Source of the DNA: Spirosoma fluviale
GTDB lineage: Bacteria > Bacteroidota > Bacteroidia > Cytophagales > Cyclobacteriaceae
DNA length: 39,738 nucleotides
NCBI GenBank assembly: GCA_945897085.1
Contig: CAMDEU010000010.1
Span: 1 to 39,738, forward strand
Direction of reading: 5' to 3'
Of the stretch, positions 2,095 to 33,554 are shown one piece after another (position 1 is the stretch's first letter; every line of letters begins with the position of its first letter). The translations under genes and the position numbers were made by a program. The notes beneath the pieces were generated by a model. It saw only the letters and a program-made list of their open reading frames with translations. It had not been told where the DNA came from and did not search any database.

Positions 2095-3582
2095 TTAATA
2101 GATCCGGTTTCGGAGTTTTTCCGTAGATGGTCTATCTAAATCAACCAAATACCCATTCACAACTGCATATTCGAATTTACCGTCTTTGGTCAAGAAAAAA
2201 TTGGGCACAGCGCCCGTAGTCCAGCCCCCGGAAAATTTAGATCCCAACTTCAACACCACTAGCGGAAGACTATGCATCTCTTTTACAACATCCTTCTTGA
2301 CGTGAATGGCCAAATATCCTTGGCGTAGGAGTTCCGTTGCCTTTTCCATACTCACCTTTTTTACGCTTTTAAAGGACTTTGGGTATACTTTCCCTTCCTT
2401 GTGCTGGAGGCCAGTAGCATCTAAGTTTTCTAGTCCAAAGAAAACCTGCATATCACCTAAGTCTTCTACAGATCCTACAAAAGAATAGCCCCCCTTGCCC
2501 TCTATCTCCCTTCTTCGGATACCAAGATCTATCGGGTACCAGTTGCCATTTAACGGAACTTGCATCTCCTGAATAAGCAAATCCATCAATTGAATCCCAT
2601 TGTCTGGAATAGCAAAATACTGTTCCGTAGTGTATTGCGTATAGCTACGGGTAGCAATAGTGTACAAGGCATCTAAGAGTAGTATAAAATTGATCTTACG
2701 CACCTCTTGCTTTTCTGGATCACCCACTAATCCTCCTGACTCGATCAAAATGGTGCTCGTTCCCCATTTTTGAATATTATCCCCAAAAGCCCGTGGCTCA
2801 AAGGCATCGTCATATTTGCCCACTTGGCCAGGAATCAATTCTTGAAGGAGTTGATTCATGCTGGCAATGGTCTGCATGGCCCGGCCACGAACTTCATTGA
2901 TCTCAGTTGCCTCGTTGTAGGCGGGAGCAAGCAAGGAAATCGTCGCCTGCTTGGGCGTGTTCACCACGTTGTAATAGATCTGCTGGTCGTGAAGGTTAAA
3001 TCCAAATTCGGGCTCAAAGTCATCTCGGGCTTTTTTCAAAACCACCGCCTCTGGAGAAATGAGGGAAATGGCATCCCTGTTCAGGTCAATGTCCAGTGCA
3101 TTCCTCCGCTTGAAAACATCAGCCCCATCGGGATTGAGCATGGGGATAAATTTGAGCCGCAATTGGGAGTTAAGCAGCTGTCTAAACGTATCATATTGAT
3201 CGCCTTTTCCTTCCAGGAAATTGAATAGATCAAACAAGGCCATTGTCGCAGTGCTTTCATTACCATGCATTTGAGACCAGAGCATGACCTTGGTCTCCCC
3301 TTTGCCCCAGTCTAAGGAGGATATGGATTTGCCTAAGACGGAATTTCCCAATGGAATCACCTCAAATTGATCCGAATGCTTTTGAATCAGGGGCTGCAAA
3401 TCGGCATGAGTAAATCGCCTATACGTAATCGCAGGTTCGCGATACTTTTCAAAGGCTTCATCTAGCTGAGAAATTTTAAGTTGAGCAGTAGTGGTCTGGG
3501 CACAGGTAAACGTAGCTCCCAAACCAAAAAAAAGAGCAAAGCCCAAAAGGTGTCTTTTTAGTGCATTAACCCGCATCTTCAT
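2095..3582 (-). CDS. Secreted M14-family zinc carboxypeptidase
   Basis: This is an exported metallopeptidase of the carboxypeptidase A/Zn family M14, probably removing C-terminal residues from peptides outside the cytoplasm. A signal peptide is visible (basic start, hydrophobic stretch about 11-25, ending TCAQ). Zinc ligands are the HGNE motif (residues 106-109) and His198 in NLHDQ; NPDG (150-153) and NRD (168-170) match substrate-binding positions, and Glu281 in ILIESGG is the expected catalytic glutamate. The remaining 200 C-terminal residues have no domain I recognise, though Bacteroidota M14 proteins of about 500 residues are common. Two start codons lie close together (Met1 and Met3). 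Substrate unknown. Confidence 0.88.
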   Translation of the reverse strand: MKMRVNALKRHLLGFALFFGLGATFTCAQTTTAQLKISQLDEAFEKYREPAITYRRFTHADLQPLIQKHSDQFEVIPLGNSVLGKSISSLDWGKGETKVMLWSQMHGNESTATMALFDLFNFLEGKGDQYDTFRQLLNSQLRLKFIPMLNPDGADVFKRRNALDIDLNRDAISLISPEAVVLKKARDDFEPEFGFNLHDQQIYYNVVNTPKQATISLLAPAYNEATEINEVRGRAMQTIASMNQLLQELIPGQVGKYDDAFEPRAFGDNIQKWGTSTILIESGGLVGDPEKQEVRKINFILLLDALYTIATRSYTQYTTEQYFAIPDNGIQLMDLLIQEMQVPLNGNWYPIDLGIRRREIEGKGGYSFVGSVEDLGDMQVFFGLENLDATGLQHKEGKVYPKSFKSVKKVSMEKATELLRQGYLAIHVKKDVVKEMHSLPLVVLKLGSKFSGGWTTGAVPNFFLTKDGKFEYAVVNGYLVDLDRPSTEKLRNRIY

Positions 3583-26827: not shown

Positions 26828-28576
26828 TTATTTCGTATACAAAGCCTCTACTCGATCCGCGTACTTTTCCATGATTACCTTTCTTTTAAGTTTCATGGTA
26901 GGAGTAAGCTCCCCGGTCTCAATTCCCCAAGAGGTATCCAGCAATTCAAATCGCTTGATCTGTTCCCAGTTGCCAAAAAACTGATTAAACTGCTCTACTT
27001 CGTTCAAGAACTTCTCCTGAACTTTTTCGTTTTGAATCATTTCGGCATCCGTGGTATAGGCAATATCATTTCGTTTGCAGAACTCTTTTAATCCATCGAA
27101 GCTAGGTACAATCAGGGCCCCTGGATAGTTACGGTCGGCGCCCACAACAATCAATTGCTCAATAATGGGTGATTCCTTAAACTTATTTTCCATCGCCTGT
27201 GGAGCAATATATTTACCTCCAGAGGTTTTGAACATCTCTTTCTTTCGATCGGTAATCTTCAAATACCTTCCATCAAGCACTCCAATATCTCCGGTATGGA
27301 ACCAGCCATTTTTAATTACCTCAGCGGTCATCTCTGGCTCCTTATAGTAGCCCTGCATTACGTTCGGTCCCTTTACGAGAATCTCCCCATCCTGAGCTAT
27401 TTTCACTTCTACATCTTTTACAATCTTCCCCACATATCCAATGCGTATTTCTTCTTTAGTGCCTATTGAAGCAGTGACGACTGGTGAAGTTTCCGTAAGA
27501 CCATAACCTTCACATACCTTGATGCCTGCGGCCCAAAAAACGCGAGCCAAACGTGGCTGTAACGCAGAAGCTCCCGAATTAATTTGCAGGATATTTCCTC
27601 CCAAGGCCTCTCTCCATTTCGAGAAAATAAGTTTGTTGGCAATCTTCAACTGAAAATCATACCAGCTTCCCATATTTGCTGCAGGGTCGTTTCTAAGCCC
27701 TAATTCCAAGGCCCAGAAAAACAGTTTTTTCTTAACTCCTGTGAGTTCATAACCTTTCGCTACAATTTTATCGTAGACTTTTTCAAGCAAACGAGGAACT
27801 GTATTGAAAAGATGGGGCTGGACTTCTTTCAGGTTATCTCCAATAGTTTCCATATTTTCAGCATAGTAAACTGAGTAACCCATGTACATAAAACAGAAAG
27901 AAGCTGTTCGCTCAAAAATATGGCAGAGGGGAAGGAAGCTCAAAACTTTGGATGTTCCTATTGGAGGAGACATAATATGCGATACTGATATCAAATTTGA
28001 AAGCACATTTGCATGAGTCAACATCACTCCTTTAGGTTTACCAGTAGTTCCAGAAGTATAAATAATCGTAAATAAGTCTTCGGGCTTTACACTCGATTTG
28101 TGAGCCGCTAAAGAATTAAAATCACCCGATTTTCCTTGTCCTTGCACTTCTGTCCAATGTGCCACTTCAGACAAACGATCAAACGAGTAGATCTTTCTTC
28201 CACTGGACGCCTGTAGCGCTTTGTCATAGATCGTCTGATCTCCAGCAAAAATGAGCTTCACTTCCGCATGGTCAAAAATATAGGCATAATCCGCAATCGT
28301 GATGGTTGGATACATCGGAACTGATATCACCCCTATTTGCTGCAAGGCCAAATCGATAAAATTCCATTCTGGACGATTTTCAGAAATGATGGCCACTTTT
28401 TCTCCTGGCTGTATTCCCTGCTCCAAAAAACCCAAACTCAATTCATCGATGATGTTTTGAACTTCTTTTGACGAGTACGTTTTCCAAATGCCTTCTTCCT
28501 TTCTTCCGAAAGCGATCTCCTTATTAAATTTGCTAATCTGATAGGGAATAATATCAAATAAACGGGTAAGTTCCAT
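26828..28576 (-). CDS. Long-chain fatty-acid-CoA ligase (AMP-forming)
   Basis: This adenylate-forming enzyme activates fatty acids to acyl-CoA with ATP, feeding the beta-oxidation genes downstream. The 582-residue protein has the P-loop-like motif IIYTSGTTGKPKGVMLTH, GYGLTETSPVV, the FHTGDIGVLDGRYLKITDRKKEMFKTSGGKYIAPQ block with the hinge and the C-terminal catalytic lysine region, as in the long-chain (FadD15/FACL) subgroup. There is no obvious membrane segment. It is on the same strand as marR-fadN, 331 bp upstream of marR, and is probably a separate transcript. It is the first gene to the left of the candidate origin. Confidence 0.92.
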   Translation of the reverse strand: MELTRLFDIIPYQISKFNKEIAFGRKEEGIWKTYSSKEVQNIIDELSLGFLEQGIQPGEKVAIISENRPEWNFIDLALQQIGVISVPMYPTITIADYAYIFDHAEVKLIFAGDQTIYDKALQASSGRKIYSFDRLSEVAHWTEVQGQGKSGDFNSLAAHKSSVKPEDLFTIIYTSGTTGKPKGVMLTHANVLSNLISVSHIMSPPIGTSKVLSFLPLCHIFERTASFCFMYMGYSVYYAENMETIGDNLKEVQPHLFNTVPRLLEKVYDKIVAKGYELTGVKKKLFFWALELGLRNDPAANMGSWYDFQLKIANKLIFSKWREALGGNILQINSGASALQPRLARVFWAAGIKVCEGYGLTETSPVVTASIGTKEEIRIGYVGKIVKDVEVKIAQDGEILVKGPNVMQGYYKEPEMTAEVIKNGWFHTGDIGVLDGRYLKITDRKKEMFKTSGGKYIAPQAMENKFKESPIIEQLIVVGADRNYPGALIVPSFDGLKEFCKRNDIAYTTDAEMIQNEKVQEKFLNEVEQFNQFFGNWEQIKRFELLDTSWGIETGELTPTMKLKRKVIMEKYADRVEALYTK

Positions 28577-29048
28577 GTCCTACGATTTTGGGTTGATTGA
28601 TTTTATAATATTAACAAATCATTCGTAATTCCACAAGAATAGGATATCCACAGCATTTTATTTACTATATGTATATTAAATTATTTAATTATTAAAACAT
28701 ATAATAGTTATTAAGGCTGTGGACATGTGGAAAAGCTTCTTTTTTAAGCTTAGTCACAATATCATTCTAGTTTTCCTGTTATTTTACACCTGTTATCCAC
28801 AGGATTTCCACTTTGAAGCTCCTGTGCATCAGCGCACTAACTCAAGACCTTGTTTTTTGGGGATGAAGCGCTATCTCCGTGACGTGTACAATCACCCTGT
28901 GGACAATATGCTTTTGGATAGTGGATAAACTAGCATTTATTCCCAATTATTTTTCCAGAATGAGGATCGCAATTTTACTGGTGGAAAACTCCTGATTCTC
29001 AAGATATTTAAACGTGCTTATCCACAAAAAATTTATGGGTTATCCACT
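28577..29048. other. Candidate chromosomal replication origin (oriC)
   Basis: The 456-bp noncoding gap is rich in DnaA boxes (consensus TTATCCACA). Perfect: 28793-28801 and 29018-29026. One mismatch: 28644-28652 (ATATCCACA), 28726-28734 (reverse, TTTTCCACA), 28898-28906 (reverse, TTGTCCACA), 28920-28928 (reverse, TTATCCACT) and 29040-29048 (TTATCCACT, which overlaps the 3' end of the lipoprotein gene). Two mismatches: 28718-28726 and 28980-28988. Both orientations occur. The block 28655-28714 has only 4 G/C in 60 bases and borders the boxes, as expected of a duplex-unwinding element. mnmG, a gene often near bacterial origins, and two parS sites lie within 5 kb to the right. dnaA is not in the window. 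Confidence 0.82.
28655..28714. other. Candidate DNA unwinding element of oriC
   Basis: Sixty bases with only four G/C, flanked on the left by the DnaA-like box at 28644-28652 and on the right by the pair at 28718-28734. Confidence 0.7.
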
Positions 29049-30724
29049 GATTTTTTTTCAGTTTTTCGTAATCCAGAAGGATTATTTGCTCGAATAACTA
29101 GGTCCTCTACCGTCCAGCCTCCTCGAACCACAAGATCTCTTGTCTGTTCTTCTCCTTCGTAATAGAAGACTCGTTCCGCAGATCTACGCGTCTGGTAATT
29201 TGAAGGATCCCAAATCCCATTTCCATTTCGATCTTCAATTACTCGTAAACTATAGGTTCCAGGGTCTAGAAGGCTAAAAGAAAATTTGCTCTCGTTGTCG
29301 AGTTTCAGCTCGTACTCAATCTCCTTTTTCCCACTGATTAACTGAACGACTAATTTTCCGTCGGTACCCCTGATCTCTCCGCTTATGCCATCTGCTAAAT
29401 TTTTTCGTTTTAACTTCCTATAGTTGGCCTGTATGGGCTTTTCGTTTACTTCTCCTTCGATGTCCTGAAAGGTAGAATCTGCGGCAATTAACGATATTAA
29501 GTCCGTTTCTATGGAATCTGGAAGAAATAGGTTTATCCGTAATAGATCCCTTTTGCTTGAATCTGCAAAGCTGAGCATCTCTTTACGGATTGGAATTAAA
29601 ATACTATCGGCTTTAATGGCCAAAGAATCCATTCGAATTTGTGTAATGGGCTTATTAAAATTTAATTCCATCGACAATTTTTGATAGAAGCTCTTCCCTG
29701 AATTCACCTGAATGGTTAGCTTCTCTGCTTTTCTATCCGATGGAGGAAACTTGGCCCATACTAGAGAATCCTTGCTAAATCCCACAGAATCCTTGAGGGA
29801 AATTTTCAACGGAATGCTATCTGAAATGGGGCTTTTTTTGAAAAAACGAAGGCGCTTGTCTCCTTGAACGTAAAATATACGGTCTCCTAGACCTTCGATT
29901 TCGACCTGTGTTTGGAGCGGATTCCGGTTGAGCACTACATCAAAATTCTTTCCAAATGAGGCTGTGCGGAGGAATTTGATGGGGTTGAGATCTGCTTTAG
30001 ATAGGTTGAAAAAGGCAGAATCACTACTGTTAGCATCCAAATTAAGCGTGTCTGGCAAGAAATCATAATCCTCGCTCTTGTACTCTGCTTTTAGGTTTCC
30101 GTTGTTGTCTCTCCAGGCATAGGCCCTGTAAGCGCCCGCTTTTAGGTTAGTCAGGTTAAAATTACCCAGGGTATCCACTTGTCCTAGGTAGTAGGGTGGC
30201 GCAGTAAATACATCTGTACTATCGTCTAATGGATAAATGCCTACCAATACATTTCTGTAATCTTCGGATTGCTCTGAATAGGGAAATCGAAGCGATCCAG
30301 AGAGGTTTAAGCTGTCAATTTGATTCCCTGTTGAAATGACCAATTTTAGTTTTTCTGCCGGATTTCGTTCTGAAATATCCACCACTGATTTTTGAAAGTC
30401 AAATACATAGGTGGTACTGTCCTCCAGCTCTTGTTTAAGAAGTACGGTAATTGTGTTTTTGAGTGCGATAAATTCCACCAGATCTTTGTTGATCTTTGGG
30501 GTGATTACCACGCCCTTCGCTGGATTTTCTAAGCCTACATATTCATCAAAGGTCAACACAATTCTTTCAGGACTGATTGATGTGCTCTGATCTTTAGGGC
30601 TGCTTTCAATTAGTTTTGGGGGATCTTCGTCGCTTGGCCCGCCCATTGGCGAACTTTGCTTGGCACAGGAAAGGAAAACCAGGCAGGTAAAAAAGAGTAG
30701 CGCTATGTAAAAGAGGTTTTTCAC
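29033..30724 (-). CDS. Lipoprotein with N-terminal SbsA-type Ig-like domain, function unknown
   Basis: This 563-residue protein begins with a lipoprotein signal (LFFTCLVFLSC, lipidated Cys near residue 20). Residues about 35-130 look like an SbsA/Big_5 Ig-like domain (DPPKLIESSPKDQS, RIVLTFDEYV, VVITPKI, TTYVFDF). The rest is beta-rich, with a prealbumin/carboxypeptidase-regulatory-like segment (GNFNLTNLKAGAYRAYAWRDNNGN and later GTYSLRVIEDRNGNGIWDP). No catalytic motif is evident. The start is GTG (30724-30722), overlapping the methyltransferase stop by 4 nt (GTGA); the next Met is beyond the lipobox, so this start is firm. It is the last gene of the mnmG run and its 3' end carries a DnaA-like box. 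Confidence 0.8.
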   Translation of the reverse strand: MKNLFYIALLFFTCLVFLSCAKQSSPMGGPSDEDPPKLIESSPKDQSTSISPERIVLTFDEYVGLENPAKGVVITPKINKDLVEFIALKNTITVLLKQELEDSTTYVFDFQKSVVDISERNPAEKLKLVISTGNQIDSLNLSGSLRFPYSEQSEDYRNVLVGIYPLDDSTDVFTAPPYYLGQVDTLGNFNLTNLKAGAYRAYAWRDNNGNLKAEYKSEDYDFLPDTLNLDANSSDSAFFNLSKADLNPIKFLRTASFGKNFDVVLNRNPLQTQVEIEGLGDRIFYVQGDKRLRFFKKSPISDSIPLKISLKDSVGFSKDSLVWAKFPPSDRKAEKLTIQVNSGKSFYQKLSMELNFNKPITQIRMDSLAIKADSILIPIRKEMLSFADSSKRDLLRINLFLPDSIETDLISLIAADSTFQDIEGEVNEKPIQANYRKLKRKNLADGISGEIRGTDGKLVVQLISGKKEIEYELKLDNESKFSFSLLDPGTYSLRVIEDRNGNGIWDPSNYQTRRSAERVFYYEGEEQTRDLVVRGGWTVEDLVIRANNPSGLRKTEKKSVDNP

Positions 30725-31614
30725 TTCTTTTTAAAGATAAAGATGTTGCTGGAGTAATTTCCTGGCTTTCCGGCCTTTTGATTGGAGCGATATCCTTGCA
30801 TGACCGCCTTGAAATAGCGTGAAATGAGACCCGATTTTGGGTTTTTGTATCCCTCAGAAAGCAGGCTTACATAATAGGAATCATAGGCAAGGGGTTCTAT
30901 CCGTACCAATTCTAGTCCAAATTGTGCTTGGAAGATGGTCATGGACTTTTCAGAGAAGTGGTACAAGTGCCTTGGTACATCGTAGCCAGCCCAATCATTC
31001 CCGTAGTGTTTGGCGTCTGCCGATTCAGGATTTGGAACAGCAATTACCAAGTAACCATTTGATTTTAAATGACTTGTGATTTTTTTAACTGTCTTTCTGA
31101 GACTGTGAATGTGTTCCAATACATGAAACAGGGTGACCACATCGTAACTTTCAAGTTCAGATACCTCACTTAAATTTTCTAATACCTCAGTAGGCAATTT
31201 GCCTAAAGCGTGAATTCGGGCTTTTTCACTCGGCTCAATTCCGCTGACCGTCCAGTGTTGCCTTTTTGCTTCTTGGAGAAACTCTCCGGTGCCACATCCA
31301 TAATCCAAGAGGGCCCCACTATTACTTAAGCGGTTGATCAATCCAACCTTTCTTCTGATGCTGGACTTTCTAATTTTTTGGTAGAGCCACTGTGTAAAAT
31401 TCTGAACTTTATCCCCATGTGAGTAGTACTCTTTAAAATCGTAGTAGGGGCCGATCTCTTCCTCCTCGGGACGAGGGTTTGTAAATTGTAGTTCGCAGTC
31501 ACCACAGCGGCATAGCGTAAATTCCTTTTTACTTACTGCATGATCCTTGACTAGAAGGTGGTTGAGGATATTTCCGCTTTTGCAGAGGGGGCATTTTAGG
31601 AGGCGTTCCGACAT
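30721..31614 (-). CDS. Class I SAM-dependent methyltransferase with N-terminal zinc-ribbon-like motif
   Basis: This is a 297-residue methyltransferase of the Methyltransf_23/UbiE-like type. The N-terminus has two CxxC pairs (CPLC at residues 8-11 and CRCGDC near 34-39), typical of a small zinc ribbon, followed by QFTNPRP. The SAM site is LLDYGCGTGEFLQ, with the acidic residue in GIEPSEKA, then YDVVTLFHVLEHIHSL and YLVIAVPNPES. Such proteins with a zinc ribbon often act on sugars or lipid-linked glycans, but the substrate is not evident. Its ATG overlaps the mnmG stop by one base (TAATG), and its stop overlaps the following lipoprotein start, so all three are translationally coupled. Confidence 0.86.
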   Translation of the reverse strand: MSERLLKCPLCKSGNILNHLLVKDHAVSKKEFTLCRCGDCELQFTNPRPEEEEIGPYYDFKEYYSHGDKVQNFTQWLYQKIRKSSIRRKVGLINRLSNSGALLDYGCGTGEFLQEAKRQHWTVSGIEPSEKARIHALGKLPTEVLENLSEVSELESYDVVTLFHVLEHIHSLRKTVKKITSHLKSNGYLVIAVPNPESADAKHYGNDWAGYDVPRHLYHFSEKSMTIFQAQFGLELVRIEPLAYDSYYVSLLSEGYKNPKSGLISRYFKAVMQGYRSNQKAGKPGNYSSNIFIFKKK

Positions 31615-33492: not shown

Positions 33493-33508
33493 TGTTTCAC
33501 GTGGAACA
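33493..33508. other. parS centromere site 1
   Basis: TGTTTCACGTGGAACA. Its reverse complement TGTTCCACGTGAAACA fits the ParB-binding parS consensus TGTTNCACGTGAAACA at every defined base. It lies 14 bp upstream of the mnmG start. Confidence 0.88.
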
Positions 33509-33538: not shown

Positions 33539-33554
33539 TGTTTCACGTGGAACA
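33539..33554. other. parS centromere site 2
   Basis: An identical copy of the 16-mer TGTTTCACGTGGAACA, 46 bp from site 1; the identity extends to 19 bp (A before, GT... after). It ends 1 bp before the ybeY stop codon. Confidence 0.88.

What the first reader, a model, noticed from the sequence alone, without database searches (positions are those of the whole stretch)
28577..29048. Probable chromosomal origin of replication between an acyl-CoA ligase and a lipoprotein gene
Two perfect and five one-mismatch DnaA boxes in both orientations fall in 456 noncoding bp, next to a 60-bp block with 4 G/C. This is the organisation of a bacterial oriC. It is not beside dnaA but beside an uncharacterised lipoprotein-methyltransferase-mnmG run. 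The box sequences are read directly; their function is inferred from known DnaA biology.
Basis: partly seen in the sequence, partly recalled or inferred. Interest (0 to 1): 0.75.

Follow-up and report, generated by a model that had tools for sequence, protein, structure and literature searches.

The report
Chromosome replication origin of Algoriphagus relatives
The gap is almost certainly the place where this bacterium starts copying its chromosome; relatives keep the same place and layout, so it is a good new example of a known kind rather than a surprise.

Summary
The window is a contig of an Algoriphagus-like (Cyclobacteriaceae) draft genome. Gap 28577-29032 holds two perfect and four one-mismatch TTATCCACA boxes (the fifth, 29040-29048, lies in the lipoprotein's last codons) and the most AT-rich 60 bp of the window. 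In four single-contig relatives of four genera, sampled GC skew turns from minus to plus at this locus and back roughly half a chromosome away; dnaA is 1.0-1.4 Mb off. Genus member G176 agrees; G130 is compatible but ambiguous. Both exact parS-like sites of the assembly lie 4.5 kb away, upstream of mnmG, and at the same spot in 7 of 9 relatives tested. A core (two head-to-tail boxes 8 bp apart, short GC step, nearly invariant TTATTA, AT-rich stretch) is kept in 42-43 of 47 gaps. It is a separate one-per-genome element, found in 68 of 72 genus genomes and in none of 386 genomes sampled outside the family, possibly datA/DARS-like; it is the more novel lead.

The parts
28577..29032 (.). oriC: noncoding gap between acyl-CoA ligase start and lipoprotein stop
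   Evidence: box cluster and AT block; skew switch in relatives; gap of 396-517 bp in the 32 distinct loci where the ligase follows
28655..28714 (.). AT-rich unwinding region (4 G/C in 60 bp, lowest of the window)
   Evidence: AT-rich in the aligned relatives
28708..28713 (+). TTATTA motif next to the tandem boxes
   Evidence: loose core regex in 43 of 47 gaps, 42 with this exact hexamer; place fixed
28718..28726 (-). second box of the head-to-tail pair (ATGTCCACA, two mismatches), 8 bp from the first
28726..28734 (-). first box of the head-to-tail pair (TTTTCCACA)
28644..28652 (+). DnaA box ATATCCACA on the far side of the AT block, facing it
28793..28801 (+). perfect DnaA box TTATCCACA
28898..28906 (-). 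DnaA box TTGTCCACA
28920..28928 (-). DnaA box TTATCCACT
29018..29026 (+). perfect DnaA box TTATCCACA
29040..29048 (+). DnaA box TTATCCACT inside the last codons of the lipoprotein ORF
33493..33508 (.). parS-like site TGTTTCACGTGGAACA, upstream of mnmG
33539..33554 (.). second parS-like site, same sequence
26828..28576 (-). acyl-CoA ligase-type AMP-binding enzyme (flanking gene)
29033..30724 (-). protein with bacterial Ig-like domain (Big_5), called lipoprotein here; flanking gene and synteny anchor
   Evidence: PF13205; lipoprotein signal read by eye
30721..31614 (-). methyltransferase
   Evidence: PF13489
31614..33479 (-). mnmG/gidA
   Evidence: PF01134

Best explanation
The gap is the chromosomal origin oriC. 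DnaA binds the array of strong and weak boxes on the lipoprotein side; two head-to-tail boxes 8 bp apart (28718-28734, minus strand) then direct DnaA across a short GC step onto a single strand of the adjacent TTATTA motif and the AT-rich block (28655-28714), which melts and lets the helicase load, sending forks out both ways. The two parS-like sites 4.5 kb away would serve as the origin-linked partition site for ParB. Shown here: box cluster, AT block, conserved core, skew switch in relatives, parS co-location. Inferred: DnaA binding, order of assembly, melting, bidirectional firing, ParB binding, and that the window's own chromosome behaves like its relatives'.
For: Boxes and AT block beyond chance. 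In 47 distinct gaps of genus and family (three further loci dropped because their contig ends in or before the gap: L011, L013, L025; two duplicates removed) the box count exceeds all 200 shuffles in 45; in L015 2 and in L032 1 of 200 shuffles reach it. A loose regex for tandem boxes plus T[AT]ATAA holds in 43 of 47, 42 with exact TAATAA, and in 0 of 47 reversed and 0 of 47 complement-strand controls. A stricter core pattern occurs in 30 of 148 family genomes, once each, and in 29 of those 30 lies 275-900 bp downstream of the lipoprotein match on the same strand (reversed control: 1 hit in the 148). Skew in four single-contig genomes of four genera (10 or 20 samples of 20 kb over the chromosome plus 200 kb contiguous): local minimum 7-20 kb to the mnmG side of the lipoprotein end, return switch roughly antipodal. 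Genus member G176: seven samples negative from 410 to 602 kb, three positive from 620 kb, gap at about 618.5 kb. parS-like sites: 2 in the own assembly, both here; in 7 of 9 single-contig relatives the 1-3 sites found all lie about 2.8 kb upstream of the lipoprotein start. Boxes stay in 13 family loci where no ligase match was found in the 1.5 kb held beyond the lipoprotein, so they are not simply the ligase's promoter.
Against: No skew for the window's own chromosome: the assembly has 167 contigs and is 77% complete, and the window itself is mostly negative on both sides of the gap. Skew minima sit 7-20 kb off the gap, probably from coding-strand bias (inference). Samples that do not fit a clean switch: G114 924 kb (+0.022); G096 1896 kb (-0.042); G047 1130 kb (+0.025); G085 1103-1143 kb (weakly +) and 1243-1283 kb (-); G176 370 kb (+0.142); G130 100-220 kb (+). 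In G130 the true minimum could be near 90 kb. The samples cover only a small part of each chromosome. Two of nine relatives (G085, G202) have no exact parS match. The strict core pattern misses 118 of 148 family genomes (boxes drift); G101 has it 324 kb from the lipoprotein match. dnaA is elsewhere.
Confidence: 0.95

Rival explanations
1. The true origin is the C70 cluster (three perfect boxes in 106 bp downstream of an mtgA-like gene), and the window gap is a secondary DnaA site.
For: Boxes there are perfect and the spacing recurs once per genome in 68 of 72 genus genomes; AT-rich.
Against: In G130 the element (548.5 kb) has plus skew from 360 kb to 560 kb, a slightly negative sample at 560-580 kb (-0.012) and plus again at 580 kb. 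In G176 (455 kb) the samples at 410, 435 and 470-602 kb are all minus. In G047 (1556 kb) it lies beyond 100 kb of plus skew that begins at the gap, and the next sample beyond it, at 1695 kb, is plus too. The exact pattern is not found in 112 of 148 family genomes and in 386 of 386 genomes sampled outside the family. The parS-like sites lie by the window gap.
Confidence: 0.03
2. The boxes are a DnaA-controlled promoter of the acyl-CoA ligase, not an origin.
For: The gap lies upstream of the ligase start.
Against: The array persists (6-12 relaxed boxes in 900 bp) in 13 family loci with no ligase match in the 1.5 kb held there; skew switch and parS are not explained.
Confidence: 0.01
3. Chance cluster in an AT-rich intergenic stretch.
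For: The whole-window excess of the relaxed pattern is mild.
Against: 0 of 200 shuffles of the gap reach 9; the largest is 3; box places recur across 32 aligned gaps.
Confidence: 0.01

Closest known systems
oriC of other Bacteroidetes, far from dnaA (PMC4755523, passages seen) and labelled by mnmG (PMC12843772, figure legend seen)
   Same: box cluster at a skew switch, far from dnaA; near mnmG as in the Flavobacteriaceae example
   Different: here the gap is two genes downstream of mnmG, between an Ig-like lipoprotein and often an acyl-CoA ligase; this genus is not treated in the passages seen
Bacillus subtilis-type basal unwinding system, BUS (PMC8287927, PMC10721633, passages seen)
   Same: two head-to-tail boxes, short GC step, then AT-rich DNA
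   Different: no run of three or more DnaA-trios directly after the tandem boxes in the window
Escherichia coli oriC unwinding region (PMC10380432, passages seen; base-level layout recalled)
   Same: TT[A/G]T(T)-type motif in the AT-rich region beside a box array
   Different: Dam or IHF sites were not looked for; sequence not compared by any search

Membership tests
bacterial oriC (DnaA-dependent) | DnaA-box cluster in noncoding DNA beyond chance | tested here: met
bacterial oriC (DnaA-dependent) | adjacent AT-rich unwinding element | tested here: met
   (composition only; melting not tested)
bacterial oriC (DnaA-dependent) | GC-skew minimum at the locus | tested here: met
   met within 7-20 kb in four relatives of four genera and in G176; G130 ambiguous; own chromosome not testable
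bacterial oriC (DnaA-dependent) | origin-proximal parS (common, not defining) | tested here: met
   own genome and 7 of 9 relatives; parS consensus recalled
bacterial oriC (DnaA-dependent) | DnaA binding, strand opening, autonomous replication, copy-number peak | not testable with these tools
   bench work
bacterial oriC (DnaA-dependent) | beside dnaA (common, not defining in Bacteroidetes) | tested here: not met
   dnaA on another contig; about 0.97-1.43 Mb away in four relatives (positions)
BUS / DnaA-trio origin | tandem head-to-tail boxes next to the opening region | tested here: met
BUS / DnaA-trio origin | at least three consecutive trios with central adenine within 16 nt of the box | tested here: not met
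   at the core the run in the window breaks after two; the longest run reported for the window (4) is elsewhere in the gap; some relatives have 4-6 just after the core
datA/DARS (for the C70 element only) | DnaA-box cluster at a recurrent chromosomal locus apart from oriC | tested here: met
datA/DARS (for the C70 element only) | ATP hydrolysis or ADP release by DnaA on the element | not testable with these tools
   bench work
datA/DARS (for the C70 element only) | IHF/Fis binding sites | not tested
   no site search was made

The most novel reading that the evidence does not exclude
Cyclobacteriaceae control initiation with a two-part system: this oriC, whose boxes have drifted from consensus, plus a separate DnaA-binding element kept once per genome (boxes > > facing a box < about 68 bp on, with a short palindrome-like centre), 18-551 kb from oriC in 17 of 18 family genomes where both lie on one contig, that stores or resets DnaA as datA/DARS do in E. 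coli. In the window's own genome it appears to have outlived the chloride-channel gene that adjoins it in relatives, of which only a fragmentary tail was found.
Probability: 0.35. Interest if true: 0.65.

Novelty: new member of a known kind. Interest (0 to 1): 0.42.

Why it matters
It fixes the origin, and hence the replication arms, for relatives in which dnaA is a fifth to a quarter of the chromosome away; 3 of 14 single-contig family genomes are numbered from dnaA, two of which (G047, G085) are among the four whose skew origin was placed here instead. That bears on growth-rate estimates from metagenome coverage. The conserved core is a ready target for strand-opening tests in Bacteroidota. 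The second element offers a test of whether a DnaA-resetting locus exists in this family.

Tried and rejected
Tried: near-match of 26828-31614 in plasmid records (none). Rfam on 28300-29300 (none). DnaA-trio search: label rejected, because the run at the core breaks after two. C117 pair of perfect boxes (567, 614): lies inside an ORF that looks like a photolyase by eye, not pursued. Skew of the window itself: mostly negative, too short to decide. A strand-polar hexamer GTGGAG (444 against 154 on the putative leading strand, 67 samples) was tried as a finer skew marker; counts per sample were too few in G176. Paper searches in the held library: Algoriphagus with 'replication origin' (one paper, on Leptospira plasmids), Cyclobacteriaceae with oriC (none), further searches on Bacteroidetes oriC, Cytophaga oriC, parS (nothing on this family seen in the listings). 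For a datA/DARS-like locus nothing on point was listed, but 'datA' also matched the word 'data', so that search is weak. DoriC itself could not be searched.

Dropped before counts: L011, L013 and L025 (contig ends in or before the gap) and the duplicates L028 (window) and L029 (same gap as L021).

Full report
What was claimed and whether it is there. With a relaxed pattern the gap holds 9 boxes against a shuffle mean of 0.8 and maximum of 3 in 200 shuffles. Among 456-bp stretches taken every 50 bp, none away from the gap holds more than 2 strict boxes.

What it belongs to. The window is contig C10 of a 2.24-Mb, 167-contig, 77% complete assembly. The lipoprotein finds Algoriphagus and close kin (21 loci; some are titled Spirosoma, Cyclobacteriaceae or Bacteroidetes MAGs, one Aquiflexum). 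The run mnmG - methyltransferase - Ig-like lipoprotein - gap - acyl-CoA ligase recurs in the genus and in part of the family (Pfam names). In 13 family loci no ligase match was found in the 1.5 kb held beyond the lipoprotein, yet 6-12 relaxed boxes lie in the next 900 bp.

Is it the origin? The own assembly is too broken for a skew plot, so I used relatives. In G114 and G096 twenty 20-kb samples each, in G047 and G085 ten each, plus 200 kb contiguous around the locus in all four (4 genomes, 4 genera). Skew changes from minus to plus at the locus, with the local cumulative minimum 15.4, 16.1, 7.2 and 19.7 kb (G114, G096, G047, G085) to the mnmG side of the lipoprotein end, and back near the opposite side of the chromosome. 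Exceptions: G114 at 924 kb (+0.022), G096 at 1896 kb (-0.042), G047 at 1130 kb (+0.025), and G085, whose 200 kb are untidy (weakly plus at 1103-1143 kb, minus at 1243-1283 kb). Within the genus, G176 is minus in seven samples from 410 to 602 kb and plus in three from 620 to 697 kb, with the gap at about 618.5 kb; its sample at 370 kb is +0.142, unexplained. G130 is plus from 260 to 600 kb except two samples slightly below zero (340 and 560 kb), minus at 220-260 kb, but plus again at 100-220 kb, so its minimum is uncertain. dnaA lies 0.97-1.43 Mb from the locus in the four genomes (positions; G096 counted round the circle).

Independent support. The parS-type pattern TGTTNCACGTGNAACA (consensus recalled) has exactly two places in the own assembly, 33493-33508 and 33539-33554 of this window, between mnmG and ybeY. 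In 7 of 9 single-contig relatives the sites found (1-3 each) lie about 2.8 kb upstream of the lipoprotein start; G085 and G202 have none.

Anatomy. Aligning 32 gaps (printed output partly cut) shows a core, read on the window's minus strand: two head-to-tail boxes 8 bp apart, a short C/G-rich step, then CTTAATAAC or similar, a second AATAG-like repeat, then an A/T block, then in close relatives a facing box. A loose core regex holds in 43 of 47 distinct gaps, 42 with exact TAATAA; L015, L032, L037 and L044 fail, L046 has a variant; reversed and complement-strand controls give 0 of 47 each. A stricter pattern is found in 30 of 148 family genomes, once each (reversed control 1), and in 29 of 30 lies 275-900 bp downstream of the lipoprotein match. 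The layout resembles the B. subtilis unwinding system (PMC8287927, PMC10721633, passages seen), but the trio criterion is not met at the core in the window. TTATTA on the other strand fits the E. coli TT[A/G]T(T) motif (PMC10380432, figure legend seen).

The genome does hold a tighter cluster of perfect boxes: C70:3183-3288, with a fourth, one-mismatch box near 3333. The pattern box-N6..16-box-N50..80-reversed box is found once in 68 of 72 genus genomes (50 of 50 near-complete), once in 36 of 148 family genomes (25 of 84 genera) and, in a phylum sample of 395, only in the 4 genus members, so 0 of 386 outside the family and 0 of 5 other family members there; the reversed-pattern control gave none in these three calls. 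Diverged copies would be missed. In 32 genus genomes with both on one contig it lies 67-304 kb from the gap, 27 of 32 oriented with the fork if the gap is the origin (contig length biases this set). In 18 genomes of the family search with both on one contig (G130 is in both sets) distances are 18-551 kb in 17, and 4,034 kb in G068, not examined further. In G130, G176 and G047 it lies inside an arm rather than at a switch, so it is unlikely to be the origin. In 7 of 12 flanks examined (two genus members and ten genomes of nine further genera) the longest ORF on one side looks like a voltage-gated chloride channel (confirmed by Pfam for two). In the own genome tblastn finds only about 65 residues of that gene, in two frames (an assembly error is not excluded), while the boxes are intact. 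A datA/DARS-like role is a guess from anatomy.

Known or new. Bacteroidetes origins far from dnaA are in print (PMC4755523, passages) and an origin labelled by mnmG is shown for a Flavobacteriaceae strain (PMC12843772, legend). The origin is therefore a new member of a known kind; the searches named in Tried and rejected listed no description for this family in the held library.

Noticed in passing
L002 (own contig C70) 3183-3288, fourth box near 3333; also L210-L239, L256-L265: A second DnaA-box element of near-fixed spacing, once per genome in 68 of 72 genus genomes and 36 of 148 family genomes, 0 of 386 sampled outside the family; not at a skew switch in the three genomes checked. Possible datA/DARS-like locus.
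   Followed up: partly
L002 3378-3573: Apparent remnant of a chloride-channel gene tail (about 65 residues in two frames) next to the intact box element in the own genome; relatives such as L226 and L256 have a long open frame there whose far end lies beyond the locus.
   Followed up: partly
window 33493-33508 and 33539-33554: Two identical parS-like sites, the only exact matches in the assembly, between mnmG and ybeY.
   Followed up: yes
G114, G096, G047, G085, G130 samples: Hexamer GTGGAG is strongly strand-polar (444 against 154 on the putative leading strand); a possible polarity motif.
   Followed up: partly
L003 567-622: Two perfect DnaA boxes 47 bp apart inside the end of a photolyase-like ORF (named by eye).
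   Followed up: no
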